DNA from: Thiomicrorhabdus chilensis DSM 12352
GTDB taxonomy: Bacteria; Pseudomonadota; Gammaproteobacteria; Thiomicrospirales; Thiomicrospiraceae
NCBI RefSeq assembly: GCF_000483485.1
Contig: NZ_KI519609.1
Span: 1,331,460-1,395,459, forward strand
DNA length: 64,000 nucleotides
Reading direction: 5' to 3'
A program made the translations under genes and the position numbers. Shown piece after piece: positions 2,214 through 64,000 of the stretch (positions are counted from its first letter, which is position 1; each line of letters starts with the position of its first letter). Under the pieces are notes generated by a model. That model saw only the letters and a list, made by a program, of their open reading frames with translations. It did no database searches and had not been told where the DNA came from.

Positions 2214-3230
2214 ATGACACATGCCGTAACTTTCTGGCTTCCAGGCCTGCTCGATTCAAAACGACGCCAAGAGGCCGGGGAACAATTCAATCCCAAGGCC
2301 TTTCCCATTCTGCAGAACTTACTTAAAAAGGCCGATCTTTATCCGCTGACACAGAACAGGGACTTTTACCAAACGGCCAGCCAACTGTTTCATCAGCCGA
2401 CTTGTCTGCCAATAGCCGCCACCATGGCATCCATCCTGGTTCCATCTTTTGATGCCGACTGCTTCTGGGTCAAACTCGATCCGGTTCAGTTAATTCCCGA
2501 CCGGGATACCTTACTGCTGATTCCCGGGAAGGATTTGGGCATTAGAGAAGAGGAGGCCAAGGCACTGATTGAAGTTTTCAACCAACACTTTGAGCAGGAT
2601 CAGGTTCAAATTGAATACGGCACGCCAACCGATTGGTTCTTGCGCATCAAACAACCCATAGACCTGAAAACTCATACGCTCGATACGGTCAGCTATCGCT
2701 CATTAAGTGATCATTATCCCAGCGGTCATGCTGCCCAGTATTGGCGACAACTGCTGAATGAAGCCTCCATGCTGTTCTTTAATCACCCGATCAACGAAGA
2801 ACGTCGCGAGCAAGGCCTGCCCGAGATCAATGGACTTTGGCTTTGGGGAGAAGGGCAACTGCATGAAAACACCAAACAAAATCGAGAAAAAATGGTGGTC
2901 TGGTCAGAAAACACCTATTTGATGGGAATGGGGCATCTCTGCCAAACGCAAATCAGATCCTTTCCTGAAAACCAGCAGGCCTGGTCGCTGGAGGATGCGG
3001 ATTACCACTTTTTGATGCCGGAAATTTTACGCCAGAAACTCGATTCACTCTCTTTGGAAGAGTGGTTGCAAACTCTAGAATGGCTTGAGCATGAATGGTT
3101 ACAGCCTTTGTATCACGGCTTACGTGATAAGAAAATCGAATCACTGTTACTGGAGTTTGGAGATGGATTTCGTTACCACCTCCAACCTCAGCATTTAAAA
3201 CGCTTCTGGCGTTTTAAGAATCGACTTTAA
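2214..3230 (+). CDS. COG4255-type conserved protein (RpfE-like, phosphoglycerate-mutase-like annotation)
   Basis: A 338-residue soluble protein with no signal peptide or membrane segment. Its pattern (N-terminal WLPGLL; central GTPTDWFLRI; then RREQGLPEINGLWLWGEGQL) matches a gammaproteobacterial family often annotated as cofactor-independent phosphoglycerate mutase-like or RpfE regulatory protein; I know of no proven activity. The WLWG motif in the middle is the best diagnostic. Its stop codon ends at 3230 and the convergent transporter stop begins at 3231, leaving no space for a terminator. It carries two copies of the CAGGCCTG repeat (2242, 2976). The function is not established. Confidence 0.7.
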   Translation: MTHAVTFWLPGLLDSKRRQEAGEQFNPKAFPILQNLLKKADLYPLTQNRDFYQTASQLFHQPTCLPIAATMASILVPSFDADCFWVKLDPVQLIPDRDTLLLIPGKDLGIREEEAKALIEVFNQHFEQDQVQIEYGTPTDWFLRIKQPIDLKTHTLDTVSYRSLSDHYPSGHAAQYWRQLLNEASMLFFNHPINEERREQGLPEINGLWLWGEGQLHENTKQNREKMVVWSENTYLMGMGHLCQTQIRSFPENQQAWSLEDADYHFLMPEILRQKLDSLSLEEWLQTLEWLEHEWLQPLYHGLRDKKIESLLLEFGDGFRYHLQPQHLKRFWRFKNRL

Positions 3231-4208
3231 TCAGTGATCCGGCGAACAGATCTTATTCTGTTTCGCAGCTATCACGGTTTTATAGAAAAAATATACGATC
3301 ATCACTGTCAAAGCCGCCATCACCAACCAGCCAATCAACTGATAAGCTTGGCTGTTTGCAATTTGAGCCATCGTCAAGGAGGCAATCGACATTGCCGCCA
3401 ATGGGAACGTATAAGCCCACCAGGACAAGGCAAAGTTCAAATGCCTGAACTTATTGATGGAAAACACTAAGAATAGCGTGAAGAACAAGGCAAAGAAATA
3501 CAACACCCTGGCAAACCCATCCAATTGTCCACCGGTCAAAGCAACATAGGAAATGAAACCCACAGCGGGTGGGGCGATGAAAATGAAGAGGGTTGGTAAT
3601 AAACGTTCCGGCATGGGCGGATGGAAAATCAAACGGTAAAGCAATACCGATTTCAAAATTGGCCAAAACACGATGCCAATCGCGAAAAAGAACCAGTTGA
3701 TGTCTGCCGGTACGTGATGCACGCCTGCAATGGGAACCACGATATTACCGACAATCGGTATAAACCAAGCCGGATTGGAGTGTTCGATCTTGAAAAAATC
3801 ATGGTGAATCCAGTTGTACAACACCCACAAGGTCAAAACAAGCTGCAAAGCCGCACCTAAAAGCCAAAGGTTAAACGAGACTTTCACCGCCTCAATCTGC
3901 CAGAAGGCAATACTTAACAATAGCAGGCTGATGGCGATGGCCGGCATGAAATTCATTTTTACCGGATGCCGCATCTCTTCCCAGAAAGCCTGCTTGAAGC
4001 GGACCATCTTATAAAGATAGCCGGCCAGCAGAACACTGAATAACAAGACAACAAAAAACAGCAGATACTCTCCAGGTTTAATCGCCAAATCAAGCATGCT
4101 TTCGGTCTTAAGCAGGCCGATACATAAACCAGTCATGCCCATGATCATGCCAAAAAAACTGGCCGGAAAATACTGAAGTTTACTGAATCCAGAATGTGAT
4201 TTTTCCAT
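3231..4208 (-). CDS. TDT/SLAC1-family transporter (TehA-like)
   Basis: A 325-residue integral membrane protein with about ten hydrophobic helices. The N-terminus PASFFGMIMGMTGL and the repeated helix-loop pattern fit the tellurite-resistance/dicarboxylate transporter (TDT) superfamily that includes TehA, Mae1 and plant SLAC1 anion channels. The likely substrate is an anion or organic acid; sequence alone does not decide it. The gene stands alone, abutting the convergent upstream-numbered gene with zero bases between stop codons. Its 161-bp AT-rich upstream region holds an inverted repeat at 4242-4270 that could be an operator. Confidence 0.8.
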   Translation of the reverse strand: MEKSHSGFSKLQYFPASFFGMIMGMTGLCIGLLKTESMLDLAIKPGEYLLFFVVLLFSVLLAGYLYKMVRFKQAFWEEMRHPVKMNFMPAIAISLLLLSIAFWQIEAVKVSFNLWLLGAALQLVLTLWVLYNWIHHDFFKIEHSNPAWFIPIVGNIVVPIAGVHHVPADINWFFFAIGIVFWPILKSVLLYRLIFHPPMPERLLPTLFIFIAPPAVGFISYVALTGGQLDGFARVLYFFALFFTLFLVFSINKFRHLNFALSWWAYTFPLAAMSIASLTMAQIANSQAYQLIGWLVMAALTVMIVYFFYKTVIAAKQNKICSPDH

Positions 4209-4241
4209 CTTAAGGGTTCCTTAAAATTAATTTTACTTATC

Positions 4242-4270
4242 TATACATTAACTAAATTAATAGATGTATA
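4242..4270. promoter_or_regulatory. Inverted repeat upstream of the TDT transporter
   Basis: TATACAT at 4242-4248 is the exact reverse complement of ATGTATA at 4264-4270, and a second overlapping pair (ATCTAT/ATAGAT) uses nearly the same bases. It lies 34 bp upstream of the transporter ATG in very AT-rich DNA. The position fits an operator, but chance is possible in sequence this AT-rich. Confidence 0.35.
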
Positions 4271-4369
4271 AATTATATTAAAACTCAGGCAATCAATCAT
4301 GAATAAAGCATTAAAGTCTATCACTTAACCTTTAGCCAGATAAGTAATTTTAACATTTCAGGAGGAAGT

Positions 4370-6124
4370 TTAATGCATCCATTGAATGCGCAACTGCAAA
4401 TTGGTTCGTCCTGCATAATGGTTTAAACTTGGCTGATAAACACAGGTAACCGATTGTCCAGTGCGAACAGGGGTAGGCTCTGACTCGTGGCGCTTGGCGT
4501 TAAAATAGATAGCCTGTAACACCTTGCCGCCAGATGTCCTCAACTTACAAGACAGGTGGGTTTTAGTTTGCCCGACCTCTTTCAACTGAATGATCTCAAA
4601 ACGCCCACTGAAGGAGGGTTGTGGCCATTCACGACCAAAAGGTTCCAATAAAGCGATATGCTCCATTAAAACAGGAACCAAAAGATGGTCTTCAAGTTCA
4701 CCATCGGTTTCCAACAAGGGAACAGGAGGGCTTTCACCCACCTGATTCTGAATCGCCTGTTCAAATAAATCGGCAAAGACCTCCTGTTTTTCAAACGGAA
4801 TCATGCATCCGGCCGCTCCTTTGTGGCCGCCCATTGAACGGAACAATTCAGGATCTTGTTCGGACATCCACTGAAAAGCCTCACGCAAATCAATGTCGCT
4901 CACGATTGCTCTGCCGCTACCGGCCAAATAACCGTCCTCCAAATCGGTGAGCACAACGGTCGGCAAGCCAAACTGCTCTCCTATTCGGGTCGCGATGATG
5001 CCTTGAATTCCGGCATTGCCCTTAAGCGGAATCGCCAAGCTGTATTTATTCGCATGATAAAGCTCCCCAGCCCGGGTTTGAGCGTCTTCCAGCATAGATT
5101 GCTGCTGCAGACGACGGTCTTGATTATCCTGGTCGAGTTGATTGAGGTAACGCCTTGCCTGTTCAACACTTTTTGCAGTCAAAAAGTGATAGGCCGTGGT
5201 CACATCGCTGACTCGACTCGCCGCATTGATTCGGGTGGCAACCTGAAATGCCAGATATTCAGCATTGAAAGGTTCCCCTTGGTTATCATGTAATTGTTTC
5301 ATGGCTTGCCAGGCTGGCTGGTCAAACTGGTTGATATACTGCAAACCCGCTTTCACAATCGCCCGGTTATTCGGGCTTTTCAAGCTCACGCTGTCTGCAA
5401 TGGTGCCCAGAGCCACATTTAAAGCCAGAGCTTTTAAAGAGGGACTGTCTGCTTGAAGATAACCTTGCTGTACCAACTCCTGACGTACCTGTGTCATTAC
5501 CAAAAAAATCACGAAACAGCCCGCAATGGTTTTATCGTACTCACAGTCCGACTGCTGAGGATTGACAGTACATACGGCACTGGCCGGACTGCCTTCAATC
5601 GGCATCTGATGGTGGTCGGTCACGCAAACCGGAATACCGGCCTGCTTCAAGCGTTTGATTCGCGGTTCGTCGCTTGAACCCTGGTCGGCTGAAATCACCA
5701 GGGAAATCGGTTTTTCGATGCCCAGAATACGTTCACAGACTTCATCGGTGATGCCATAACCGGTTTTACGGTCACCGATGACATGCACCACACGCTCCTC
5801 AGGCACCTTAAAATAATCGACCAGAGCCGTCATCGCCACCCAGGCCGAGGTCACGCCATCGGTATCGTAATCGGTCGCCAGAACAATCACGCCATCCGCA
5901 CGGACCGCCTCGGCGATCAACCTAGCTGCGTGTTGTGAGTTTTTTAGCGCATCCGGATGCTGGATATGTTTTAATTTGGGAAAAACGATTTCCTCCAACT
6001 GTTCGACACAGTCGGTACGCTGGGCCACCAGCCTGGCTTGAAGTGGCGAAAGACCCAGATTCAGGCAGGCCTGGTAAACGGAAGAGGAGAGGGGACGTTG
6101 GACAATTTCAGGTGCTTTAATCAT
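4370..6124 (-). CDS. recJ: RecJ-family single-strand DNA exonuclease (DHH phosphoesterase)
   Basis: Predicted 5'-3' single-strand DNA exonuclease used in recombination and mismatch repair. The 584-residue length is close to E. coli RecJ (577). Metal-binding motifs are visible: DYDTDG at 85-90, SADQG near 146-149, the DHH triad at 170-172, and the DHHA1-type GGHKGAAG motif towards the C-terminus. Some positions differ from classical RecJ (DYDTDG for DFDADG; SADQG for TVDNG), so it could be a RecJ-like paralogue; the rest of the genome would settle this. It is divergent from the esterase gene with only 17 bp between start codons. One CAGGCCTG repeat lies at 6066. Confidence 0.82.
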   Translation of the reverse strand: MIKAPEIVQRPLSSSVYQACLNLGLSPLQARLVAQRTDCVEQLEEIVFPKLKHIQHPDALKNSQHAARLIAEAVRADGVIVLATDYDTDGVTSAWVAMTALVDYFKVPEERVVHVIGDRKTGYGITDEVCERILGIEKPISLVISADQGSSDEPRIKRLKQAGIPVCVTDHHQMPIEGSPASAVCTVNPQQSDCEYDKTIAGCFVIFLVMTQVRQELVQQGYLQADSPSLKALALNVALGTIADSVSLKSPNNRAIVKAGLQYINQFDQPAWQAMKQLHDNQGEPFNAEYLAFQVATRINAASRVSDVTTAYHFLTAKSVEQARRYLNQLDQDNQDRRLQQQSMLEDAQTRAGELYHANKYSLAIPLKGNAGIQGIIATRIGEQFGLPTVVLTDLEDGYLAGSGRAIVSDIDLREAFQWMSEQDPELFRSMGGHKGAAGCMIPFEKQEVFADLFEQAIQNQVGESPPVPLLETDGELEDHLLVPVLMEHIALLEPFGREWPQPSFSGRFEIIQLKEVGQTKTHLSCKLRTSGGKVLQAIYFNAKRHESEPTPVRTGQSVTCVYQPSLNHYAGRTNLQLRIQWMH

Positions 6125-6141: not shown

Positions 6142-6786
6142 ATGGGGCAATGCAGTTGCGTCTATCTACACGGCTTTTTAAGCAGCGGAAACAGCCTAAA
6201 AGGGCAATGGTTCAAGCAGGCATTCGCAGTTCGGAAGAGTTCGTCCTCGTCAAGCATCCACTGCCGGGTTTTGACACCGACCTATCCAATGCAAGACCCA
6301 CAAGAAAGCATGCGTTTTCTGCACCAATTCATAAAACAGACAGGCCTGCTCAATTCTGAAAGAAAATGGTTTCTGGCCGGCTCTTCCATGGGCGGGTTTT
6401 ATGCCCGTTATCTGGCACATTATTACCGCGTTCCGCTGCTTATGATCAATCCGGCGCTCGATCCGATTGCTCTTATGTCGAATTATTATGGTATGCACTA
6501 CAATCCGCATACCCGTGAAGAACTGTTCATTGACCAGATCTATCGAGACAAGCTGGCTGAATTTTACCCGCAAACTGCTGCCAAACCATTGGATAGTCTG
6601 CTTTTGCTGGATAAGGGAGATGAAATCATCCCTTACCAATCCACGCTGAAACACTATAAAAAAGACGACAGGCAGCAATGCCTGATATTTGAAGGGGGAG
6701 ACCATGCGTTCCAACATCTGGAGGAGGCCAAACCGCAAATTGAACTTTTTTTGAGTGATAGCTTGTTCAAAAGCGACCAGTTTTAG
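6142..6786 (+). CDS. YqiA/YcfP-family alpha/beta-hydrolase esterase
   Basis: A 214-residue cytoplasmic hydrolase. It starts with the family hallmark YLHGFLSS; the nucleophile elbow GSSMGG puts the catalytic serine at Ser82; LLLDKGDEIIPY carries the acid and GGDHAFQHL the histidine. E. coli YqiA is an esterase active on short-chain substrates; the physiological substrate is unknown. The start is supported by GGAG at 6127-6130. There is a run of six serines near residue 33, which lengthens the first loop relative to typical members. The start codon is 17 bp from the divergent recJ start, so each promoter must overlap the other gene. Confidence 0.8.
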   Translation: MGQCSCVYLHGFLSSGNSLKGQWFKQAFAVRKSSSSSSIHCRVLTPTYPMQDPQESMRFLHQFIKQTGLLNSERKWFLAGSSMGGFYARYLAHYYRVPLLMINPALDPIALMSNYYGMHYNPHTREELFIDQIYRDKLAEFYPQTAAKPLDSLLLLDKGDEIIPYQSTLKHYKKDDRQQCLIFEGGDHAFQHLEEAKPQIELFLSDSLFKSDQF

Positions 6787-10917: not shown

Positions 10918-10940
10918 AATTCAATTTTCAATTGATATAC

Positions 10941-10970
10941 AGCAAAACCAACAGGCCTGTTGGTTTTGCT
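10941..10970. terminator. 30-bp perfect palindrome between cbbY and hopJ-like gene, centred on CAGGCCTG
   Basis: A perfect 30-bp palindrome with arms AGCAAAACCAACAGG and complement, centred on the CAGGCCTG repeat at 10952-10959. It lies between two convergent genes and would form a bidirectional terminator, with TTTT near the end of each arm. It is the longest of the repeat-centred palindromes. Confidence 0.8.
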
Positions 10971-10998
10971 GCTTACTTAACATCTCGTTATAGATTTA

Positions 10999-11346: not shown

Positions 11347-11369
11347 TCTAGTTCCTTAATATCTTTAAA

Positions 11370-14093: not shown

Positions 14094-16668
<2,575 letters not shown>

Positions 16669-16690
16669 GCACCGTCTGAAAGCACATCAG

Positions 16691-16712
16691 AAATGGGCAG
16701 GCCTGCCCATTT
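16691..16712. terminator. 22-bp perfect palindrome centred on CAGGCCTG, after darP
   Basis: Arms AAATGGGCAGG and its complement with the CAGGCCTG repeat at 16698-16705; TTTT continues beyond the right arm. It lies between the convergent darP and exporter genes, so it likely terminates both. Confidence 0.75.
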
Positions 16713-16739
16713 TCACCCACTCCCAAAATTCATTTTCTT

Positions 16740-19937: not shown

Positions 19938-20810
19938 ATGAAAGTTGATTTTCACTGCCATACCACCGCCTCCGATGGGGCCTTAACGCCCAGCCAATTA
20001 ATCGAACTGGCTGTGCAGCACCAGATTGAACAGCTTGCCATCACCGATCATGACACCACCGCAGGTTATGAGTCAGCCCGAAACCAGCAGGCCTGTCAAG
20101 AAAGCCTGAAACTGATCAGCGGAGTGGAAATCTCCTGTCAATGGCAAGGGCACACCATCCACATCGTAGGCCTGGATTTTGACTGCGAAAACAAAACGTT
20201 ACAAGCAGGTCTTGAACATATTCGCGACTTGCGCCGGACACGAGCCGAAGCCATCTTAAACAAGTTAAGCGCACGCCCCAACTTCAGCCAACACAACCTC
20301 CCAAAGCTGCTTGAACAACAAGTTGGGGAAGGCATTGTGGGCCGTGGCCATTTTGCTCAGCTTTTGATTCAACTTGGCTATGTCAAAAACAGCCAGCAGG
20401 CCTTCGACCGCTACCTAAAAAGAGGTCGGGTAGGATTTGTAAAAAGCGAATGGCCAGAACTCGAGCAGGTTGTAAACTGGATCACACAAGCCGGAGGAAT
20501 CGCAATCATTGCGCATCCGGCAATCTATAAATTCACCAGCAACAAACTGAATCGACTCATTCAGGACTTTAAATCGGCCGGCGGCCAGGGCATTGAGGTG
20601 ATTAATCAGCCACGATCCTCGTCCGACAGCATTGGCATGGCCGAGCGCGCGCAACGTTTTGGGCTACTGGCTTCAAAAGGTTCCGATTTCCATAGACCGG
20701 AACATACGTGGCGAGGATTAGGCTGGTTGGCTCCTTTGCCTGCCCAGTGTGATCCAGTCTGGCATCATTTCAACCACGCCTCCACCCCGTCATCTCATCA
20801 ACCTTCTTAG
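19938..20810 (+). CDS. rnm: PHP-domain phosphoesterase (RNase AM / YciV family)
   Basis: A 290-residue PHP-domain enzyme. Metal motifs are visible: HCHTTASDG near the start, ITDHDTT, VEIS and the final GSDFHRP. E. coli YciV (RNase AM) is a 5'-3' exonuclease that matures 5S/16S/23S rRNA ends. The gene order with yciO and rluB matches the E. coli trp-adjacent cluster. One CAGGCCTG repeat at 20088 encodes part of QQAC. Confidence 0.88.
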   Translation: MKVDFHCHTTASDGALTPSQLIELAVQHQIEQLAITDHDTTAGYESARNQQACQESLKLISGVEISCQWQGHTIHIVGLDFDCENKTLQAGLEHIRDLRRTRAEAILNKLSARPNFSQHNLPKLLEQQVGEGIVGRGHFAQLLIQLGYVKNSQQAFDRYLKRGRVGFVKSEWPELEQVVNWITQAGGIAIIAHPAIYKFTSNKLNRLIQDFKSAGGQGIEVINQPRSSSDSIGMAERAQRFGLLASKGSDFHRPEHTWRGLGWLAPLPAQCDPVWHHFNHASTPSSHQPS

Positions 20811-23230: not shown

Positions 23231-23238
23231 CAGGCCTG
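23231..23238. repeat. CAGGCCTG repeat, intergenic copy
   Basis: Copy between rluB and the minus-strand unknown gene; the left side has the extended arm (CCCATTTT read outward). It is adjacent to the nested hairpin at 23243-23279. Confidence 0.8.
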
Positions 23239-24416: not shown

Positions 24417-24965
24417 ATGCTTAAAAGGTCATTTAAAACCCAATTTCGTATGCCACAACTTAACAGCGCCAGCTCAATTTACCAAACCTCAACAGACAGT
24501 CTGCGCGTCTATACCGACGGAAGCTACCATGCCCAGCAAAACCTTGGAGGTTGGGGAGTGGTCATCATTGATGCACATCAAAAGGTATGGCAATACTCTG
24601 GCTGCAAACGCCACACGTCAAGCCTGGAAATGGAATTGACTGCGGCGGTATTCGCTTTGCAACAGCTTGTCGATGATTCGGTTTCTGCTAAAAACATCAG
24701 CTTGTATACCGATTCCAAAATCCTTCTGGAAGGGCTTGAATATAAAATCGAACATTATCGTCGGCAAAACTGGATTCACAAATCCGGCAGGCCTGTTGAA
24801 TCTCGAGAGTTGTGGTTGCGTCTGCAACATCTCAGCCAGAGCTTGCCGGTTTCAATCAATTGGGTAAAAGGGCATGCCCGAAATCCAGGCAACCTAATGG
24901 CAGACGCCTTAGCCAGAAAAGCCTTATTGACTTCGTGCCACACTCGCCAATCAGATAACAACTAA
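24417..24965 (+). CDS. rnhA: Ribonuclease H-like protein (RNase HI)
   Basis: Degrades the RNA strand of RNA-DNA hybrids. The 182 residues contain the four acidic catalytic residues: Asp34 in YTDGS, Glu73 in MELTAA, Asp99 in YTDS, and Asp163 in MADALA, with His153 of KGHARNPGN in the flexible loop. The N-terminus (to residue 28) is longer than E. coli RNase HI; an ATG at 24450 would remove 11 residues. A CAGGCCTG repeat at 24788 encodes GRP. Identity as the main RNase HI rather than a paralogue depends on the rest of the genome. Confidence 0.85.
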   Translation: MLKRSFKTQFRMPQLNSASSIYQTSTDSLRVYTDGSYHAQQNLGGWGVVIIDAHQKVWQYSGCKRHTSSLEMELTAAVFALQQLVDDSVSAKNISLYTDSKILLEGLEYKIEHYRRQNWIHKSGRPVESRELWLRLQHLSQSLPVSINWVKGHARNPGNLMADALARKALLTSCHTRQSDNN

Positions 24966-25300: not shown

Positions 25301-27130
25301 TCAGGCCGTCTTATTCTGCTGGCTATCATCCAACAGCAGCCAGGCACTTTGGCTCTCTGCATTGAGCTGCAATTCAACCCGGTCATGGAGCGCAGGCTGA
25401 AGTTCAATTTGGGCCTGCCTTAACTCATCCCGTCTAAAATAATGACAACTCCAACTGACCGAGGTGTTTTGCAGGTTGATACGTTTCAACTGTTTTTCAA
25501 TCACCGAAGACGAAGCGGTCTTAAGGCCGTTAAGGGCAAGAATCTCATCGCCCGCCGCCAAACCCGCTTGATAAGCGGCCTGACCTTGCCAAACATGAGT
25601 GACCTTAACCGTTTGGTGTTCAGTGTCCGCCAGATTAGCACCCAAATGAGCCGGTAACAGCGATCCTTGGGCTTCACCGCCTTTATCGGTCAAACTGGTC
25701 GGTGCGCGCAAACCGAAGCTCACCCCCTCCAAAGGAAGCCAATCTGCAAAAGGCAGGTCTTGTGTGCCATATAGATAATTCTCAAAAAATTCACTCAAGT
25801 CCAATCCGCTGACCTGTGAACAGATAGACTCTATCTCATACTCTTCTAACCCCTGGCCCGTTTGACCGTAGTGATTCCAAAGATGAAGCAAAACATCATC
25901 CAGCGATTTACGATTTTGAGTGTGCTGACGAATCGTCAAATCCAATCCCAAAGCGATCAAACTGCCCTTGGTGTAATAGCTGATGATGGCGTTGGGCGCG
26001 TTTTCATCTTGCTGATAAAACTTTGTCCAGGTCAACCAACTCGATTCTGCAGCCGATTGCTTGAAACGGCCTGGCATGCGGTAAACCCGGGTCATCTGTT
26101 CAGCCAGCACCTTAAGGTACTGTTGAGCATCGATAATGCCGGCGCGCAATAGAATAAGGGCATCGTAATAGGACGTAATGCCCTCAAACCACCATAACTG
26201 ATTGGTGTAGGCCGGTTCTTTCAGATCCGATTGCTGATAAACTTTCGGCTGAATGCGTTTGACGTTCCATAAATGGAAATATTCATGGCTACACAGCTCC
26301 AAAAACTGTAAATAGCCTTCGGTGGCTTCTTCCATGCCAACATAAGGCAAGTCGTCGCGACTGCACATCAACGCGGTAGAGTTACGATGTTCCAAGCCGC
26401 CATAATCACTTCCGGTGACCATCACCTGAAACAGGTAACTTTCCATGGGGGCTTCACCCCCAAACAACCTGATTTCCGTTTCACAGATTTTAATCAAATC
26501 TTGCTTAAGTCTCTGTGTATCTATATTGAACAGGCCTGTCAAAACCATCCGGTGAGGAATGCCGCAGGCTTCAAAATGAATTTCGGTATAGGTGCCCATT
26601 TCAAAGGGGTAATCAATTAAGGCCGCATAATCCTCGGCCTCATACAAACCATAACCCCGATCATCAACCGATAGGGCGGGCATGCCCGTTGCCACACGCC
26701 AATCTTGATTGACGCAAAATTCAGTCGACAACAACTCCAAAGTGCACGCTTGCTGCTCCTGACCGTCTACCCCTAAAAATACAGAAGTGCCATTGAAAAA
26801 ACCGTGTGTCTCATCAAAGTGAGCGCCTCTTACCGACAGATCCCATGCGTACACTTTATATGACAAGACCACCGGCGCTCCGTCACTGGCAAACTGCCAG
26901 GTTGATTTATCGAGCGAGACCAATTCCACGTGCTGACCGGATTGTGTGTTGGCGCGCACTTCAATCAAATGTTTGGCAAAATCGCGAATCAAATAACTGC
27001 CAGGAATCCAATTGGGCAGTGATACGGTCTGCACCGGAGTGGCGGGCTGGGAAATCGTCAGGGTGACTTCATACAGATGGCCTTTGGGATCGGCTGGGGA
27101 GAGGGTATAGTGAATAGGGCTAAGTTTCAT
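25301..27130 (-). CDS. M61-family metallopeptidase with PDZ domain
   Basis: A predicted zinc aminopeptidase of about 610 residues (glycyl aminopeptidase family M61). The catalytic zinc motif is HEYFHLWNVKR, flanked by the family blocks IPGSYLIRDFAKHL and GGLEHRNSTALMC. A PDZ-like domain occupies the last 120 residues (GLAAGDEILALNGL). The start at 27130 gives the usual N-terminus MKLSPIHYTLSPAD; upstream ATGs at 27160 and 27205 lack good ribosome sites. It has no signal peptide from this start, so a cytoplasmic location is likely. A CAGGCCTG repeat is at 26531. Confidence 0.85.
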   Translation of the reverse strand: MKLSPIHYTLSPADPKGHLYEVTLTISQPATPVQTVSLPNWIPGSYLIRDFAKHLIEVRANTQSGQHVELVSLDKSTWQFASDGAPVVLSYKVYAWDLSVRGAHFDETHGFFNGTSVFLGVDGQEQQACTLELLSTEFCVNQDWRVATGMPALSVDDRGYGLYEAEDYAALIDYPFEMGTYTEIHFEACGIPHRMVLTGLFNIDTQRLKQDLIKICETEIRLFGGEAPMESYLFQVMVTGSDYGGLEHRNSTALMCSRDDLPYVGMEEATEGYLQFLELCSHEYFHLWNVKRIQPKVYQQSDLKEPAYTNQLWWFEGITSYYDALILLRAGIIDAQQYLKVLAEQMTRVYRMPGRFKQSAAESSWLTWTKFYQQDENAPNAIISYYTKGSLIALGLDLTIRQHTQNRKSLDDVLLHLWNHYGQTGQGLEEYEIESICSQVSGLDLSEFFENYLYGTQDLPFADWLPLEGVSFGLRAPTSLTDKGGEAQGSLLPAHLGANLADTEHQTVKVTHVWQGQAAYQAGLAAGDEILALNGLKTASSSVIEKQLKRINLQNTSVSWSCHYFRRDELRQAQIELQPALHDRVELQLNAESQSAWLLLDDSQQNKTA

Positions 27131-39394: not shown

Positions 39395-39402
39395 CAGGCC
39401 TG
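39395..39402. repeat. CAGGCCTG repeat, intergenic copy after arsC
   Basis: Both sides carry the extended arm (CTCATTTT on the left read outward, TCTATTTT on the right). It may act as a weak terminator for arsC. Confidence 0.8.
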
Positions 39403-39548
39403 TCTATTTTACCAATCCAAAAAACCCCATCCTCATCAGATTAAAATTCGCCAATCCCTAAACGTCATTCGACAACCGATCAAAGCCATCAAATAAAGAA
39501 TACAAAAGAGAGCATACCCCCAATAATCACACCCCAAATCCAATTTAA

Positions 39549-43949: not shown

Positions 43950-45509
43950 ATGTTTTTCAAACCGCTTAACCTTCGCCTTTCGATTCGAACTCGTTTCTTT
44001 ATCTTATTGTTATTATTGACCATTCTTCCTTTTCTAGCCTACCGGTTCGCCATTGACCTGCACCGACTTCTGTTGAACAATCAAGCGATTGTACAGAAAC
44101 AAACTGTGGAAAACCTGGCTTTGATTCTGCAAAACCGAACCGATCTCTGGGCACTGCAAATCCAATCGGGCGATCCCAGCAGGCTGAGCCACCTCAATCT
44201 AAAGAATTCAGTCTTATGGATTGTCAATGAATACGGGCAAACCACCTACGTGGTTGGCAACTTGCCGGACTCCGATGCAGGCCTGGATGAAAAAGACGTA
44301 TTTACCGCTATCGGCAAAACCCTGATTAAAACCCTGGCCACGGTAATTCCTTATTCCCTGCCCTATCCTTACCCGCAAAGCCAGACACCCGAAATCAACC
44401 TCATCGCCAATGCGCTTAAAGGCAACACCTTTCAGCAGTATCGAATGGATGAAAACCAGCAACCCATATCCCTGATGTCTGCTACCCCTTTGAGTTTCAA
44501 AAACAACATTATCGGCGGCCTGGTCCTTGAAGAAAAGATGGAAACCCTCTCCAGCGATACGCTGGATTATTTCTACAGATTGATCGGAATCGGGGCGATG
44601 ATTTTTCTGATTGTGACCATTGGCGCCATTGTCCATACAGCCTCTTTGTCCAACAGAATCATACGCTTGGACAATGATGTTAAACTTACATTTAACATAC
44701 AAGGTAAACTCAAAGACCATATTTTTCCCGACCAATTTCAGCAGTTCTATAATGACGAACTGTCCGATCTACGCCACCACATTCACGAAATGCTGGGTCA
44801 GCTTGGCGCCTATGAACGTTATCTCAAACAGCTTCCTAGAACCTTGCGACACGAACTTCACAACCCCCTGAATCGGCTTTCAATGGCCTTGCATTTGCTT
44901 GAAAACGATACACAAAGCAAACAGTTGGAATACGCTCAACATGCCGTTGCGCAACTCAAACAAATTATCGCTTCACTTTCCGAAGCGACCAGCATCGAAG
45001 ACAGCCTCACCCAACAGCCACCGGAAATATTCGCCATTGGAGAGATGCTGCAGCACTATCTAGAGAACAGTTTGACACTGCATCCAGAGTACCAGCTGCA
45101 ATTCGACAACAAAATCTCAAAACAGTGCAAAGTGCTGGGCGACGGCTTTATGATTGAACAAATGCTGGACAAGCTTTTGAGCAACGCCAAAGATTTCAGC
45201 GATCACCGCAAACCCATCCGCGTTCAGTGCACACACGATAACCAAAACGTCAGCATTGCCGTCGAAAACAGCGGTCCAGCCCTGCCTAAAGGACATGAAA
45301 AACGCATTTTTGACGGCATGACATCGATTCGCGATTTAAATCAGGACAGCCAGACCCATTTAGGGCTCGGGTTATATATTGTTAAACTGATTACCGATTA
45401 CCATAAAGGGCGCGTCTATGCAGAAAACCTGTATGCCGATGATCAACAGCACGTAGAGGGTGTGCGTTTTACCGTTGAATTGCCGATTGTGACTCAAAAA
45501 ACAGCCTAG
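43950..45509 (+). CDS. Membrane sensor histidine kinase paired with the response regulator
   Basis: A 519-residue kinase: TM1 at about 15-33, a periplasmic sensor of about 180 residues, TM2 at about 212-233, a HAMP-like segment, then a HisKA-type helix with His301 in LPRTLRHELHNPLNRL, and an HATPase domain (N box LLSNAKDF; THLGLGLYIVKLI). The text SEATSIEDSL after the H box matches sortase-linked kinases, which have the same spacing. Its periplasmic sensor has no motif I recognise. It likely phosphorylates the regulator at 43184. Confidence 0.82.
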   Translation: MFFKPLNLRLSIRTRFFILLLLLTILPFLAYRFAIDLHRLLLNNQAIVQKQTVENLALILQNRTDLWALQIQSGDPSRLSHLNLKNSVLWIVNEYGQTTYVVGNLPDSDAGLDEKDVFTAIGKTLIKTLATVIPYSLPYPYPQSQTPEINLIANALKGNTFQQYRMDENQQPISLMSATPLSFKNNIIGGLVLEEKMETLSSDTLDYFYRLIGIGAMIFLIVTIGAIVHTASLSNRIIRLDNDVKLTFNIQGKLKDHIFPDQFQQFYNDELSDLRHHIHEMLGQLGAYERYLKQLPRTLRHELHNPLNRLSMALHLLENDTQSKQLEYAQHAVAQLKQIIASLSEATSIEDSLTQQPPEIFAIGEMLQHYLENSLTLHPEYQLQFDNKISKQCKVLGDGFMIEQMLDKLLSNAKDFSDHRKPIRVQCTHDNQNVSIAVENSGPALPKGHEKRIFDGMTSIRDLNQDSQTHLGLGLYIVKLITDYHKGRVYAENLYADDQQHVEGVRFTVELPIVTQKTA

Positions 45510-45531: not shown

Positions 45532-45555
45532 AAAACCAGCAGGCCTGCTGGTTTT
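45532..45555. terminator. 24-bp perfect palindrome centred on CAGGCCTG
   Basis: Arms AAAACCAGCAGG and complement centred on the repeat at 45540-45547, between the convergent kinase and SPOR genes. TTTT ends each arm. Probably a bidirectional terminator. Confidence 0.78.
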
Positions 45556-47109: not shown

Positions 47110-47532
47110 TTACTCAAACTCTCCGGTCAGATAAACCCAGCGGCCGTTTTTATCACGCTGAAACTCACTTTTCTCGATCATTTGATGAGTTTCAAACCCT
47201 ATCTGATATTGGGCAGCAAAGGTCACCCAGCCCTTCTTGTCTTTCGAACGTCCTTTTTGACACTTGAGAATCGTCAATTTTTGCCAACTCAAACCGTTTT
47301 CAAATTCAATTTGAGCAGGCCTGCTCTGTGAATCCCAAGTTTTTAGCAGATATTCTTCAAGCCTCAAGGCAAAGGCCACATAACGCGAACGCATCAACTG
47401 CTCAGCCTCTTCGGGAAAATGAGTACCAATATGATAGGCTTGGCAACAATTTGCATAGGACTTGCCAGACCCACACAAGCAAAACGCATCTCCCTTATGA
47501 AGAGCGTTCAGGTCATCCGCTAAACTTGGCAT
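47110..47532 (-). CDS. ychJ: YchJ-family SEC-C motif protein
   Basis: A 140-residue protein starting with the metal-binding SEC-C-like motif FCLCGSGKSYANCC. The remainder is the UPF0225 (YchJ) fold with MRSRYVAFAL and WVTFAAQY. It has no proven function. Its start overlaps the preceding MATE gene by 20 bp on the same strand. It contains CAGGCCTG at 47316. Confidence 0.88.
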   Translation of the reverse strand: MPSLADDLNALHKGDAFCLCGSGKSYANCCQAYHIGTHFPEEAEQLMRSRYVAFALRLEEYLLKTWDSQSRPAQIEFENGLSWQKLTILKCQKGRSKDKKGWVTFAAQYQIGFETHQMIEKSEFQRDKNGRWVYLTGEFE

Positions 47533-49376: not shown

Positions 49377-50012
49377 TTATAAAACTCGTTTTTGATAAAA
49401 AAGCCACTGCAAAGCAATGATAGTACTCCCCACATTAAATTGGCCCTGTTGCAGTCGGCGTTCAGCCTCTTCATAAGGCAACTGTACAATCTTAATGTCT
49501 TCGTGATCTTCGTCCAACCCGGCGTAAGTGGGCAGTAGATCTGCATCAATCTCAGAGGCAAATAAATGCAAAACCTCATCACTTCCCCCCGGGCTGGGAT
49601 AAAACTGGCAAACATACTCAAGAGATTCTAAACGTGTCCCAGCCTCTTCCAAAGCTTCACGTCTGGCGGCGTCTTCTGGCGTTTCACCTGAATCAATCAT
49701 ACCGGCTACCGGCTCCAGCAACCAGGCCTGCTCATTTTCACCGGACTTTAAAGCATGCTGCAAAGCGCCTGCCCGACATTGCTCCACCAAAACAACCACC
49801 CTACTGACGGGATCGTACAACAATACGATAGCAGCTTCGCCGCGACCAAACAGTTCACGCTGAATGGTTTGCGTCCAGCCGCCCTGATAAAGGGTATGCT
49901 TAAAGTCAATCAAGTCGATCCTGAAAAAACCGTCATAACCGCTTTCTATCCGCTGGACTTCAATAGCTTTTGTTTCTTGCTTCCCGTTCAAAACATCGCT
50001 GTTAATGGTCAT
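49377..50012 (-). CDS. nudF: ADP-ribose pyrophosphatase (Nudix)
   Basis: A 211-residue Nudix hydrolase. The Nudix box GMIDSGETPEDAARREALEEAG is complete and the residues around it (GRGEAAIVLLYDPVSR; FYPSPGGSDEVLHLFASEID) are the NudF/ADP-ribose pyrophosphatase type. It starts with a clear Shine-Dalgarno GGAG. It is 18 bp after alr and contains CAGGCCTG at 49733. Confidence 0.9.
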   Translation of the reverse strand: MTINSDVLNGKQETKAIEVQRIESGYDGFFRIDLIDFKHTLYQGGWTQTIQRELFGRGEAAIVLLYDPVSRVVVLVEQCRAGALQHALKSGENEQAWLLEPVAGMIDSGETPEDAARREALEEAGTRLESLEYVCQFYPSPGGSDEVLHLFASEIDADLLPTYAGLDEDHEDIKIVQLPYEEAERRLQQGQFNVGSTIIALQWLFYQKRVL

Positions 50013-59066: not shown

Positions 59067-60407
59067 TCACGCCTCCTGTTTGGATTCAATTTGCATACCA
59101 ACCTCATTCATCAAACTGACAAAGGTTGGAAAAGAGGTATTCACATTGGCGCAATCATCAATCACCACCTCGGATACCGCATTCAAACCAGCGACAGTCA
59201 TAGCCATAGAAATTCGATGGTCATGGTGACTCTGAATCTCCGCGGCTTGAGGTGACTGCTGCCCTCCATTTATGACCATACCATCCGGGGTTGGCACAGC
59301 ATCAATGCCGACTGCCTGCAAGGCATCCGCCATCACTTGAATGCGATCCGACTCCTTAACACGCAACTCTTCCGCACCGCTTAAAACAGTTTGTCCGGTT
59401 GCACTGGCCGCGGCCACAAAAAGCACCGGGAATTCATCAATCGCCAAAGGAACCAGTGATTCGGGAATCTCAATACCTTGTAAAGGAGCATAACGGATGT
59501 GCACATCAGCTACGGGCTCCCCCCCTACTTCATGAGCATTTTCCAAAACAATATTGGCGCCCATTAATTTTAAAATATCAATCACACCGGTACGGGTAGG
59601 ATTCATCCCCACATGCTCTATGACAAGGTCAGACCCTTCTGAAACCGCAGCCGCCACCATAAAAAAAGCCGCTGACGAAATATCGGAAGGCACATCGATA
59701 TGGCGTGCTTTCAAACTCCCACCACCTTGCAGACAAGCCCGGGTGCGGCTGTTATCTAGCCGCGTTGAAACCACTTCATAACCAAAACCGTTGAGCATGC
59801 GTTCAGTATGGTCGCGGGTTGGTGCAGGCTCTTCCGCACAGGTTTTGCCTTGTGCATACAGGCCTGCCAACAATACACAGGATTTCACCTGGGCGCTCGC
59901 CATGGGCAAAACATAATCAATGGCCTTAAGAGTTTGGCCGTGTCCGCATATCTTCATCGGCAAGGTGCCCCCTTCTGCCGTTTCGATTTTCGCACCCATC
60001 ATCGCCAAAGGGTCGGTCACACGTTTCATAGGGCGTTTAGACAAAGAAGCATCTCCAACGAGTTCGCAATCAAAATCCTGTCCTGCAAGAATACCCGCCA
60101 GTAAACGTGTGGAAGTTCCTGAATTGCCCATATCCATTGGTTTTTCAGGTTTCTTCAAACCACGCAAACCCACACCATGAATGGTCACATTTCCCTTATC
60201 CGGCCCCTCTATCTGAACGCCCATATCCTTAAACGCCTGCAGTGTTGCCAAGGCATCGGCACCCTCTAGAAAGCCGGTCACCGTGGTGGTGCCTTCGGAA
60301 ATGGCTCCCAGCATAATACTGCGATGTGAGATCGACTTATCTCCGGGCACTCGGATACGTCCGTGGATACGTCCACCGGGTTGAACAATAAATTTTACGT
60401 TTGCCAT
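59067..60407 (-). CDS. aroA: 3-phosphoshikimate 1-carboxyvinyltransferase (EPSP synthase)
   Basis: Sixth step of the shikimate pathway. 446 residues; N-terminal PGDKSISHRSIMLGAIS, GNSGTSTRLLAG and, towards the end, RVKESDRI plus DHRISMAM are the class-defining blocks. The GNAGT-type region reads GNSGTSTR, as in class II (glyphosate-tolerant-type) enzymes. Follows tyrA after 52 bp. Confidence 0.96.
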   Translation of the reverse strand: MANVKFIVQPGGRIHGRIRVPGDKSISHRSIMLGAISEGTTTVTGFLEGADALATLQAFKDMGVQIEGPDKGNVTIHGVGLRGLKKPEKPMDMGNSGTSTRLLAGILAGQDFDCELVGDASLSKRPMKRVTDPLAMMGAKIETAEGGTLPMKICGHGQTLKAIDYVLPMASAQVKSCVLLAGLYAQGKTCAEEPAPTRDHTERMLNGFGYEVVSTRLDNSRTRACLQGGGSLKARHIDVPSDISSAAFFMVAAAVSEGSDLVIEHVGMNPTRTGVIDILKLMGANIVLENAHEVGGEPVADVHIRYAPLQGIEIPESLVPLAIDEFPVLFVAAASATGQTVLSGAEELRVKESDRIQVMADALQAVGIDAVPTPDGMVINGGQQSPQAAEIQSHHDHRISMAMTVAGLNAVSEVVIDDCANVNTSFPTFVSLMNEVGMQIESKQEA

Positions 60408-60459: not shown

Positions 60460-61332
60460 TCAATCCTGCTTATTCACTATATGCTTGTCGCGAGCCTGCT
60501 TGGCTTCATCAAACAGATGATAAAGCCCCTGTGCATCCTTGCCTTCAACCAGTTGAATCAGCTCAGTCAAGGCGTGCTGATAGTTTTTCAACCATTTGGC
60601 GATGGCACTGGAGTTGTTAACGGCAATATCACGCCACATGACAGGATCACTGGAAGCGATGCGAGTAAAGTCCCTGAATCCGCCTGCAGTGTACTGAAAC
60701 ACATTGCCCAGTTCAGCGTGCTCATTCAACAATTCGACCAAACTGAAAGCCAGCAAGTGCGGCAGGTGGCTAGTCGCAGCCAGCACTTCATCATGATAGT
60801 CCGGGGCCATACTCACAACATTGGCCCCCAAGGCTTTCCACAAATTTTCGACCGTTTTCAAGGCGTTTAAATCGGTTTCTTCTGTAGGTGTTAAAATCAC
60901 TCGATGATCCACAAACAAATCTGCAGTCGCCGCTTCAACCCCGCTTTTTTCTTTTCCTGCAATCGGGTGTCCGGCAACAAAATGCGGTGGCAGTTCACCA
61001 AAAACCTGTTTGACCGCCTCGATCACACTCATCTTGGCGCTGCCCACATCCGAAATAATGACGTTCTCTTTCAAAAACGGGGACATATCCTGCAACACCG
61101 ACTGCATGGCACCCAAGGGAACACCCAGCATAATCAAATCGCTATCGGATACTGCCTGCTCCATATCGGTTGTATAGGCGTCTATCACGCCCAATTCAAC
61201 GGCGGTTTTGAGATTGGCCTCATTTTGACCAAACCCGATCACCTGAGGTACCAGGCCTGCTTGTTTTATACCTTTGGCAAAAGAGCCACCAATCAGACCC
61301 ACGCCAATTATCGTTATCTTCTTCAGTTCCAT
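60460..61332 (-). CDS. tyrA: Prephenate dehydrogenase
   Basis: Makes 4-hydroxyphenylpyruvate for tyrosine. 290 residues; NAD-binding GVGLIGGSFAKGI at the start, HPIAGKEKSGVEAA and HLPHLLAFSL are conserved. A single-domain enzyme without a chorismate mutase domain, as in Pseudomonas (cyclohexadienyl type). CAGGCCTG at 61252. Confidence 0.94.
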   Translation of the reverse strand: MELKKITIIGVGLIGGSFAKGIKQAGLVPQVIGFGQNEANLKTAVELGVIDAYTTDMEQAVSDSDLIMLGVPLGAMQSVLQDMSPFLKENVIISDVGSAKMSVIEAVKQVFGELPPHFVAGHPIAGKEKSGVEAATADLFVDHRVILTPTEETDLNALKTVENLWKALGANVVSMAPDYHDEVLAATSHLPHLLAFSLVELLNEHAELGNVFQYTAGGFRDFTRIASSDPVMWRDIAVNNSSAIAKWLKNYQHALTELIQLVEGKDAQGLYHLFDEAKQARDKHIVNKQD

Positions 61333-62474: not shown

Positions 62475-62556
62475 TTTTTATTTCTTAATAAGACCCGATT
62501 TAAGTCTTGTTTTAATATCGAGAATTCAGAGAGAAGTTGGCTTTCAACAAGACAAC

Positions 62557-63663
62557 TCAAGCCTCCAAAGGGGAAACCGGATAAGAACCCAGAATCTTGA
62601 AAAAAGAGGCTTTATCCTTAACCTCTTCCAGAGCCTGTCTGACATTTTCATCCACCTGATGCCCCAATACATCGATGAAAAATAGATAATCCCATTTTTT
62701 ATCGGTCGATGGACGTGAAATGATTCGCGTCATACTGATATCACGTTTGGAAAAACAAGACAAGAGCTCAAGCAGAGCGCCGGATTTATTTGGAATCGAC
62801 ACAATCATGGCGGTTTTATCTTCACCGCTCGGCTGGGTAGTCTCACGACCAATCACCCAAAACTTGGTGGTATTGTCACGCTGATCTTCAATATTGGATT
62901 CCAAGATTCTCAAGCCATAAAGTTGCGCCGCCTGCTCGGAAGCGATGGCCGCTAAAGAACCATCCTCTTGCGCCATCTTAGCCGCCAAAGCATTCGAATC
63001 GACCGCCTCAAGTTCCGCCCAGGGCATATTGTTTTTCAACCAATGCTCGCACTGCCCCAAAGCCTGGCTGTGCGCCACCACCTTGCGAATCAACTCAACT
63101 TCATCACCTTTGGAGAGCAGACAATGATGAACCGCCAGATCGACTTCGCCAGAAATAGTCAGGCCTGTGTGAATCATCTCCTTTTCGGTATTTTTTACCA
63201 CACCCTCCGAAGAGTTTTCGACCGGAACAATGCCGTAGTTCGCATCCCCCTTTTCAACCGTAGCGAACACCTCCTCAATAGAGGAAACCGCAATCGGATG
63301 TGCCGAAGAACCAAACTGTTTGATGACGCTGGCATGCGAATAACTGCCCTCAGGCCCCAAATAAGCCACTGAAATGGGTTGTTCCAAGGCCAGGCAAGCC
63401 GACATGATTTCACGAAAAAGACGCGCCATTTCATTGTCAGGCAACAAGCTGGTATTGCGCTGCTTGACGGCACGCAAAACCTGAGCCTCACGTTCAGGAC
63501 GGTAAAAAATGGTTTCGACCTTTCCACCCTGGGTTTTGATATCGGCCACTTTCTGAGCACAAGCTGCTCTCTGTCCAATTAACTCCTGAATTTGCTCATC
63601 AATGGAGTCGATTCGGTTGCGAATTTCAGTTAATTGTTGCTGTTCTGTCATCTGTTCTGCCAT
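62557..63663 (-). CDS. pheA: Bifunctional chorismate mutase / prephenate dehydratase
   Basis: 368 residues: chorismate mutase AroQ domain (1-90), prephenate dehydratase (from LGPEGSYSHASVIKQFG, about 95-275), then an ACT domain with SGALLELLSCFSKRDISMTRI for phenylalanine feedback. The equivalent of the ESRP motif reads RIISRPS. Starts at 63663 or at the fifth codon. CAGGCCTG at 63160. Confidence 0.95.
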   Translation of the reverse strand: MAEQMTEQQQLTEIRNRIDSIDEQIQELIGQRAACAQKVADIKTQGGKVETIFYRPEREAQVLRAVKQRNTSLLPDNEMARLFREIMSACLALEQPISVAYLGPEGSYSHASVIKQFGSSAHPIAVSSIEEVFATVEKGDANYGIVPVENSSEGVVKNTEKEMIHTGLTISGEVDLAVHHCLLSKGDEVELIRKVVAHSQALGQCEHWLKNNMPWAELEAVDSNALAAKMAQEDGSLAAIASEQAAQLYGLRILESNIEDQRDNTTKFWVIGRETTQPSGEDKTAMIVSIPNKSGALLELLSCFSKRDISMTRIISRPSTDKKWDYLFFIDVLGHQVDENVRQALEEVKDKASFFKILGSYPVSPLEA

Positions 63664-63705
63664 CTTGCCCGACCTGATACTCGATTGTCTGGATTCATTT
63701 TTAAA

Positions 63706-64000
63706 TTAAGCGTGTTTAGCTGCGAATTCACGCATAAATTCAATCAGGGCGTCCACTCCGGCTTCCGGCATGGCGTTATAGATACTGGCACGCATACCAC
63801 CAAACGCTTTGTGCCCTTTCAAACTGAGCAGGCCTGCTGATTTTGACCCTTCCAAAAACTGTCCATCCAATTCACTGTTCTTCAAAGTGAAGGTGACATT
63901 CATCCACGAGCGGTTATGCGGCACGATACTATTACTATAAAACTCCGACGCGTCTATAAACTCGTACAGCTTACGTGCTTTAGCTTGGTTGATTTTGGCA
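63706..64000 (-). CDS. serC: Phosphoserine aminotransferase, C-terminal part (5' end beyond window)
   Basis: The minus-strand frame is open past the window end: [20 protein letters not shown], then [11 protein letters not shown] and [29 protein letters not shown], the C-terminus of SerC. It begins the serC-pheA-hisC-tyrA-aroA-cmk row; gyrA is expected before it. CAGGCCTG at 63829. Confidence 0.92.

What the first reader, a model, noticed from the sequence alone, without database searches (positions are those of the whole stretch)
2242..63836. Massively over-represented palindrome CAGGCCTG (25 copies in 64 kb)
By hand I count 25 exact copies of one 8-mer for which about one is expected. It is spread evenly through unrelated genes on both strands and in intergenic gaps, so it is not a dispersed gene family or transposon. 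Behaviour is like HIP1 of cyanobacteria or the uptake sequences of Haemophilus/Neisseria, but I do not know this sequence as either. Possible roles: DNA uptake label for natural transformation, binding site of a nucleoid or chromosome-organisation protein, or a methylation site.
Basis: partly seen in the sequence, partly recalled or inferred. Interest (0 to 1): 0.88.

Follow-up and report, generated by a model that had tools for sequence, protein, structure and literature searches.

The report
Palindromic DNA-uptake-like sequence with dialects
A sulfur-oxidising bacterium and many of its relatives carry hundreds to a thousand copies of one short mirrored DNA word, spelled differently in some species, that most likely marks their own DNA for uptake, which would make it a new family of such labels if experiments confirm it.

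Summary
The window holds 25 copies of CAGGCCTG (0.78 expected); the 2.44 Mb genome (nearest named relatives: Thiomicrorhabdus) holds 900, against 26 for the reversed word. The recognised unit is longer: a graded 24-bp dyad, AAAA-YnRR-CAGGCCTG-YYnR-TTTT, found inside genes as well as between them. Of 62 genomes of the family, 31 carry at least 400 copies. Some relatives carry other spellings instead: CCCCARCCTGGYAGATTTT, AAWYTCAACAGGCCGG and ACCGGCCGGT. At a few orthologous positions one species has one spelling and its relative the other. Sites are about 6-fold denser outside genes, cluster just after gene 3' ends, and show no polarity relative to replication. ComEC scores over its cut-off in all 30 motif-rich genomes scanned. 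In 16 of those 30, the window's own included, neither of the two methyltransferase families searched was found. Copy number, dialects, intergenic excess and competence genes match the DNA uptake sequences of Neisseriaceae and Pasteurellaceae; methyltransferase-linked palindromes (HIP1) fit less well. No uptake was measured and no receptor identified. Best reading: a third family-level uptake-sequence system, mostly palindromic, for which my searches found no report; about 0.68 likely.

The parts
2242..2249 (.). core site, in ORF 2214-3230(+)
2976..2983 (.). core site, in ORF 2214-3230(+); A-tract on left flank
6066..6073 (.). core site inside recJ-like ORF 4370-6124(-)
6341..6348 (.). core site, in UPF0227 ORF 6142-6786(+)
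10940..10971 (.). core site 10952-10959 in a perfect 32-bp palindrome just after the 3' end of ORF 10156-10917(+); RNA hairpin -21.2 kcal/mol, terminator-like
16690..16713 (.). core site 16698-16705 in a near-perfect 24-bp dyad, intergenic; RNA hairpin -13.5 kcal/mol; T. cannonii has CAGGCCGG in the aligned columns
20088..20095 (.). core site, in PHP-domain ORF 19938-20810(+)
23231..23238 (.). core site, intergenic by crude gene call
24788..24795 (.). core site, genic by crude gene call
26531..26538 (.). core site in ORF 25301-27205(-); T. cannonii has CAGGCCGG in the aligned columns
29004..29011 (.). core site, intergenic, upstream of a tRNA cluster
30266..30273 (.). core site inside gnd 29741-31273(+)
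32459..32466 (.). core site inside glucose-6-phosphate dehydrogenase ORF 31276-32775(+)
36010..36017 (.). core site inside dihydrouridine synthase ORF 35896-36969(+)
36380..36387 (.). core site inside the same dihydrouridine synthase ORF
38154..38161 (.). core site inside xseA 36966-38609(+)
39387..39410 (.). core site 39395-39402 with A- and T-rich tracts on both sides, intergenic by crude gene call
44278..44285 (.). core site inside histidine kinase ORF 43950-45509(+)
45532..45555 (.). core site 45540-45547 in a perfect 24-bp dyad, intergenic, core 31 bp after the 3' end of ORF 43950-45509(+) and facing ORF 45594-46841(-); hairpin -13.0 kcal/mol
47316..47323 (.). core site, genic by crude gene call
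49723..49730 (.). core site in ORF 49377-50012(-); T-tract on right flank
59859..59866 (.). core site inside EPSP synthase ORF 59067-60407(-)
61252..61259 (.). core site inside prephenate dehydrogenase ORF 60460-61332(-)
63160..63167 (.). core site inside prephenate dehydratase ORF 62557-63663(-)
63821..63844 (.). core site 63829-63836 with A- and T-rich tracts on both sides, intergenic by crude gene call

Best explanation
The word is the core of a DNA uptake sequence of the family around Thiomicrorhabdus. Proposed mechanism: in naturally competent cells a surface type IV pilin, perhaps a minor pilin of an MSHA-type pilus, binds the 24-bp dyad, reading CCTG-N4-TTTT half-sites in either direction. 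The pilus pulls that DNA in and ComEC passes one strand inward. Recombination of preferentially taken-up DNA then copies sites into the genome (molecular drive), so they pile up where they do least harm: between genes, at gene ends where a full dyad can also serve as a transcription terminator, and in tolerant codons. When receptor specificity shifts, the set drifts to a new spelling (dialect) or decays. SHOWN: over-representation, dyad structure, dialects, placement, lack of polarity, ComEC and pilus genes. INFERRED: uptake bias, receptor, drive.
For: (1) 900 genome copies, even spread. (2) Extended motif CAGGCCTGNNNNTTTT 475 times against 1 for its reversed control. AT tracts occur in genic sites too (38% of sides; 65% in intergenic sites), so they are not merely terminator tails; the two sides are independent (48 both, 97 one, 51 neither of 196 distinct sites; 47.5, 98.0 and 50.5 expected). 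(3) Family-wide: 31 of 62 genomes have >=400 copies, 30 of 62 have <=74, one 236; 0-7 extended copies in each of 183 sampled genomes of other families of the class. (4) Other iterated words in five relatives that lack CAGGCCTG. T. cannonii has CAGGCCGG where G000 or a relative has CAGGCCTG in 4 of 15 aligned pairs. (5) G000 sites are exact in 11 of 23 aligned pairs with same-dialect genomes and in 0 of 28 with other-dialect or motif-poor ones; background 8-mer identity 8-11%. (6) 42% of sites intergenic against 10.6% non-coding DNA; convergent gaps 28 of 70 against 15% of random; median 30 bp from a 3' end against 67. (7) ComEC over its cut-off in all 30 motif-rich genomes scanned. (8) No replication polarity, 38 against 48. 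Dialects and terminator association are reported for DUS and USS (passages of PMC3630211 and PMC12616744), non-coding excess in PMC1939737 (passages).
Against: No uptake or transformation data. ComEC and pilins are also present in genomes where I found no motif, so the machinery does not predict the motif. The one pilin tested as receptor does not track it (close orthologues, 56% identity or more, in 9 of 60 genomes). 10 of 12 one-mismatch classes are below expectation (only AAGGCCTG 1.7x and TAGGCCTG 1.65x are above), whereas a graded uptake drive predicts more near-misses. A palindromic core is unusual for an uptake sequence, and PMC1939737 (passage) holds that DUS/USS are mostly not biased to places downstream of coding sequences, unlike here. 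Respelling at the same place was seen only for the T. cannonii dialect, not for G026 (0 of 11 pairs) or within genus g3 (0 of 1), and one motif-poor pair also shows CAGGCCGG (1 of 11). ComEA and DprA were not searched.
Confidence: 0.68

Rival explanations
1. A HIP1-like methylation palindrome: a DNA methyltransferase that recognises GGCC, AGGCCT or similar, together with biased repair, creates and keeps the sites; dialects reflect other methyltransferases.
For: GC-rich palindromic core, sharp edges, and one-mismatch excess only at the end base, as described for HIP1; cyanobacteria replace HIP1 by alternate palindromes that go with cognate methyltransferases (abstract and passages of PMC4390886). 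G026's ACCGGCCGGT is also palindromic.
Against: At E <= 1e-10, no PF00145 match in 22 of 30 motif-rich genomes, no PF01555 match in 21 of 30, neither in 16 of 30 including G000. The G007/G008/G013 dialect is non-palindromic over 19 bp. AT tracts 5-8 bp outside the core carry information. Strong 3'-end placement.
Confidence: 0.13
2. An intracellular binding site: an abundant dimeric DNA-binding protein (nucleoid, chromosome-organising or terminator-associated) uses the dyad as its operator.
For: Two-fold symmetric 24-bp dyad and even spacing; gene-end enrichment and terminator-like hairpins at some sites.
Against: 101 of 175 sites lie inside genes by crude gene calls, with no replication polarity. 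Hundreds of sites would need to be respelled separately under selection in congeners, and about half of the family does without this word. Known organiser sites (parS, matS, SlmA sites) number tens, not a thousand (recalled).
Confidence: 0.13
3. A by-product of codon, GC or terminator composition.
For: Some sites are terminator-like hairpins and genic sites use reading frames unequally (53, 34, 14).
Against: 12-fold over an order-3 model in 464 kb, 900 against 26 for the reversed word, 12-74 copies in several congeners, 101 of 175 sites inside genes.
Confidence: 0.01

Closest known systems
DNA uptake sequence (DUS) of Neisseriaceae and its dialects
   Same: Hundreds to thousands of copies, family-restricted, several dialects around a conserved CTG core, terminator association; some family members without any; [quoted passage not shown]
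   Different: DUS is a non-palindromic 10-12-mer (recalled). Here the dominant form is itself a palindrome with outer AT tracts, in an unrelated family; no ComP orthologue was identified or searched for by name.
Uptake signal sequence (USS) of Pasteurellaceae
   Same: Core plus outer AT-rich tracts, dialects, terminator association (PMC12616744, passages); about 1471 copies in H. influenzae (PMC1939737, passage).
   Different: The USS is not palindromic and its AT-rich regions lie downstream only (PMC12616744, passages); here tracts lie on both sides independently, 5-8 bp from a different core.
HIP1 and alternate HIPs of cyanobacteria
   Same: Highly iterated GC-rich octameric palindrome with replacements in relatives (PMC4390886, abstract and passages).
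   Different: HIP1 is GCGATCGC and goes with methyltransferases; here the two methyltransferase families searched are absent from the window's genome, one dialect is non-palindromic, and recognition extends to 24 bp.

Membership tests
DNA uptake sequences (DUS/USS kind) | Strong genome-wide over-representation | tested here: met
DNA uptake sequences (DUS/USS kind) | Dialects in related species with a shared core | tested here: met
   the G026 word shares GGCC but not CCTG
DNA uptake sequences (DUS/USS kind) | Excess outside genes, terminator use | tested here: met
   hairpins folded for three sites
DNA uptake sequences (DUS/USS kind) | Graded over-representation of near-miss words | tested here: not met
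   only 2 of 12 one-mismatch classes above expectation; expected by the drive model in PMC1939737 passages
DNA uptake sequences (DUS/USS kind) | Natural-competence machinery in the genome | tested here: inconclusive
   ComEC and type IV pilus genes present but ComEC and pilins also in motif-poor genomes; ComEA and DprA not searched
DNA uptake sequences (DUS/USS kind) | Cognate surface receptor | tested here: inconclusive
   One pilin tested does not track the motif; others not tested for covariation
DNA uptake sequences (DUS/USS kind) | Preferential uptake of DNA that carries the site | not testable with these tools
   needs an uptake or transformation assay
Neisseriaceae DUS or Pasteurellaceae USS proper | The published core words and host families | tested here: not met
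   Different core and different bacterial family; published words recalled
HIP1-type palindromes | GCGATCGC core | tested here: not met
   core is CAGGCCTG
HIP1-type palindromes | Associated methyltransferase | tested here: inconclusive
   PF00145 and PF01555 not matched in G000 nor in 16 of 30 motif-rich genomes in all; other methyltransferase families not searched
HIP1-type palindromes | Palindromic in alternate versions too | tested here: not met
   CCCCARCCTGGYAGATTTT in G007/G008/G013
Chi / KOPS type oriented sites | Polarity relative to replication | tested here: not met
   38 against 48 one-sided sites by GC-skew strand; palindromic core

The most novel reading that the evidence does not exclude
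A third, independently evolved family of DNA uptake sequences, whose ancestral form is a true dyad read as two CCTG-N4-TTTT half-sites (by a pilin dimer, or from either side), with derived asymmetric and respelled dialects, and served in some members by an MSHA-type pilus alone (single-contig genome G052 has 1128 sites, one type IV filament ATPase match, no PilT/PilU over cut-off and two PF07963 pilin matches).
Probability: 0.35. Interest if true: 0.87.

Novelty: new variant of a known kind. Interest (0 to 1): 0.77.

Why it matters
Self-recognising uptake sequences are known from two families, Neisseriaceae and Pasteurellaceae. A third, with several dialects, a palindromic form and an asymmetric form that keeps one half-site, would let the origin, respelling and loss of such sequences be followed inside one family, and would make the search for receptors a comparative problem (which pilin changes when the spelling changes). 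It also predicts that these bacteria are naturally transformable, and which DNA tag would help to transform them.

Tried and rejected
One-sided AT tract: my first profile oriented each site by its T content and suggested a USS-like one-sided tract; some searches showed that the two sides are independent, so I dropped it. One search counted one site twice because two stretches overlap by 10 kb (197 sites; 196 distinct). Lone pilin beside xerC/hslV as receptor: close orthologues (56% identity or more) in 9 of 60 genomes, among them motif-poor G029; weaker pilin matches in 55 of 60. Charge of pilins as a receptor clue: no clear separation. PilT as a requirement: G010, G015, G052, G053 and G060 (99-100% complete, motif-rich) and the less complete G048 and G057 have no PilT/PilU match over the cut-off. 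A word in motif-poor genomes: the tables of top words showed nothing comparable in samples of G030, G051, G029 (80 kb each), G024, G050 (40 kb each), G028, G042, G017 (40 kb each), G004 and G040 (20 kb each). Site-by-site dialect match in genus g3: one aligned site, no match; G026 dialect against CAGGCCTG genomes: 11 aligned pairs, none with CAGGCCTG. Text search for the 8-mer: 848 papers; none of the 30 listed titles is a study of a bacterial repeat.
Full report
OBSERVATION. CAGGCCTG occurs 25 times in the window and 900 times in the 2,443,034-base genome, against 26 for the word read backwards. In 464 kb (the window plus 20 spaced stretches) there are 175 sites against 14 expected from an order-3 model. 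Counts per 20 kb are 3-11, variance/mean 0.62, more even than chance. The nearest named isolates by the window's LigA are Thiomicrorhabdus sp. ZW0627 and zzn3 at 79% identity. That the genus is made of sulfur oxidisers is general knowledge, also in abstracts listed.

THE UNIT. Aligned flanks carry information to +8 on each side: AAAA-YnRR-CAGGCCTG-YYnR-TTTT. The T-tract (at least 3 T of +5..+8) is on both sides in 48, one side in 97 and neither in 51 of 196 distinct sites; independence at the observed per-side rate of 0.49 predicts 47.5, 98.0 and 50.5 (one search gave 48/97/52 of 197 because one site was counted twice). So the unit is a dyad of two half-sites, not a one-sided motif; one search had suggested the latter because I had oriented the sites by T content. 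Genic sites (101) keep the tract on 38% of sides and intergenic sites (74) on 65%, so the tract is part of what is recognised and not only a terminator tail. The pattern CAGGCCTGNNNNTTTT occurs 242 + 233 times in the genome, control 0 + 1.

PLACEMENT. By crude gene calls (ORFs of at least 80 codons), 74 of 175 sites are outside genes, which leave 10.6% of the DNA non-coding: a six-fold higher density. Of 70 intergenic sites with both neighbours called, 28 are between convergent genes (15% at random), 35 tandem (60%) and 7 divergent (25%), and the median distance to a 3' end is 30 bp against 67. Full dyads there fold as hairpins: -21.2, -13.5 and -13.0 kcal/mol at window 10952, 16698 and 45540; a genic site, 2242, does not. 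In intergenic sites the two flanks pair slightly more than permuted flanks (3.92 against 3.67, sd 0.15), in genic sites slightly less (2.45 against 2.66, sd 0.14), consistent with part-time use as terminators. A generic terminator scan of window 10000-29900 found no more terminator-like sites than shuffles and did not list 16698 or 10952. One-sided sites show no polarity with the GC-skew strand (38 against 48); within genes the T-tract lies on the coding strand 19 times and on the template 33 times. Reading frames are used unequally: 53, 34 and 14.

FAMILY. Among 62 genomes of the family (the same 62 that an order-wide search returned), 31 have at least 400 copies, 30 have 74 or fewer and one incomplete genome has 236. 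Motif-rich genomes occur in four of the seven genera. In each of 183 sampled genomes of other families of the class the extended pattern occurs 0-7 times. A MiaB tree of 15 genomes separates two genera with 100/100 support and shows CAGGCCTG in both, with the CCARCCTGG pair (100/96) nested in one (7 of 12 inner branches open). CAGGCCTG is therefore probably ancestral.

DIALECTS. Samples of motif-poor relatives revealed other iterated words: G007, G008 and G013 CCCCARCCTGGYAGATTTT (by exact 9-mer seeds 20 sites in 100 kb, 21 in 140 kb, 18 in 80 kb); G023 AAWYTCAACAGGCCGGST (51 seeds in 120 kb; AACAGGCCGG 19 against 0.4 expected in 60 kb); G026 TTACCGGCCGGTWA (73 seeds in 180 kb). Motif-rich relatives differ in flanks: G005 has GYnR and clear T tracts, G006 and G015 weaker ones; G031 and G021 ACCAGGCCTGGT; G052 and G053 ASCAGGCCTGST without clear tracts. 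The CCARCCTGG dialect keeps one half-site (CCTG-GYAG-ATTTT) and lacks the symmetric partner. No comparable word stood out in the top-word tables of G030, G051, G029, G024, G050, G028, G042, G017, G004 and G040. Thiomicrorhabdus cannonii HH3 (locus L141) has 11 CAGGCCGG and 1 CAGGCCTG in 22 kb.

SITE HOMOLOGY. Aligning G000 stretches to relatives, G000 sites are exactly conserved in 3 of 8, 2 of 6 and 6 of 9 aligned pairs with three groups of same-dialect genomes (11 of 23 pairs; by distinct G000 sites 3 of 6, 2 of 6 and 3 of 5), and in 0 of 28 pairs with other-dialect or motif-poor genomes; 8-mer identity over the same alignments is 8-11%. The motif-poor group held three metagenome loci (L138-L140) whose state is known only from counts of four words. 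In the T. cannonii group 2 of 6 pairs have CAGGCCGG at the same place (window 16698 and 26531); in the motif-poor group 1 of 11 does. From the T. cannonii side, 4 of 15 aligned pairs have CAGGCCTG in the aligned columns. Nothing of the kind was seen for G026 (0 of 11 pairs) or within genus g3 (one aligned site).

MACHINERY. ComEC (TIGR00361) scores over its cut-off in 51 of 60 genomes, among them all 30 motif-rich genomes of that set, but also in motif-poor ones such as G030, G051 and G029. PilT/PilU over cut-off: 50 of 60; not in motif-rich G010, G015, G052, G053 and G060, nor in the less complete G048 and G057. G052 (single contig, 1128 copies) has one match to the PilT-family model, below cut-off, two PF07963 pilin matches and a gene cluster whose secretin best matches MshL (196.6 bits, below the 250.2 cut-off) and whose ATPase carries an MshEN domain. 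If a type IV filament takes up DNA there, it is this MSHA-type one: inference. Its 245-residue minor pilin and two neighbours are receptor candidates without further evidence.

METHYLATION RIVAL. At E <= 1e-10, PF00145 was matched in 8 of the 30 motif-rich genomes scanned and PF01555 in 9; 16 of 30, G000 included, have neither. HsdM, Dam, MethyltransfD12 and other classes were not searched, so the rival is weakened, not excluded. Elhai 2015 (PMC4390886; abstract and passages) reports alternate palindromes with cognate methyltransferases in cyanobacteria and end-base bias in one-mismatch words; here too the only two of 12 one-mismatch classes above expectation (1.7 and 1.65 times) change the end base.

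COMPARISON. In Neisseriaceae, DUS dialects share a CTG core, lie at terminators as inverted pairs, are absent from some family members, and in Simonsiella overlap as dyads (PMC3630211, passages). USS have a core plus downstream AT-rich regions and variants (PMC12616744, passages). Bakkali 2007 cites 65% (H. influenzae) and 35% (N. gonorrhoeae) of uptake sequences inside reading frames; here 58%. The same paper argues that they are mostly not biased to places downstream of coding sequences and that a drive should raise near-miss words (PMC1939737, passages); the sites here differ on both points. Searches for uptake sequence or signal with Thiomicrospira (none), natural transformation with Hydrogenovibrio (two papers, listing only), competence with Thiomicrorhabdus (one paper, listing only) and a mixed search (12 of 123 listed, none holding the uptake term) found no report of such a sequence in this family; the library lacks most subscription journals.

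VERDICT. The sequence behaves like an uptake sequence in copy number, dialects, intergenic excess and lack of polarity; machinery covariation and near-miss excess do not support it, and membership in the functional class awaits an uptake assay.

Noticed in passing
window, whole: A second palindrome, GGGCATGCCC, is over-represented (3 sites; both-strand expectation 0.05-0.07; inner GGCATGCC 7 sites), far below CAGGCCTG.
   Followed up: no
L055 (G052:C1:1-20000): Palindrome GGATATCC 4 sites in 20 kb where about 0.1 is expected, besides CAGGCCTG.
   Followed up: no
L040 (G007:C1:1-20000): About 28 copies of words such as AGACCTAGCC and CCGCGGCTAG; looks like a CRISPR or other direct-repeat array.
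   Followed up: no
L042 (G013:C1:1-20000): Six copies of a repeat containing AGGGGTAAGGCGAGAA.
   Followed up: no
G023:C1:50689-51309 and 88072-89325: ComEC matched in two parts about 37 kb apart on one contig, as if split by a rearrangement or assembly error.
   Followed up: no
L086, L087, L175, L178, L181-L189, L191: A family of mostly acidic minor-pilin-like proteins, many sharing a PCPD or LPCP motif, in clusters next to an MSHA-type pilin or alone, in motif-rich and motif-poor genomes alike.
   Followed up: partly
window 29097-29595: tRNA cluster Ala-Glu-Gly-Glu with two tRNA-Glu(ttc).
   Followed up: no
L085 8730-18648: A 10-kb stretch of G000 with no site that holds what look like a TnpB-type and an IS200-type transposase (reading of the ORF starts only).
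   Followed up: no
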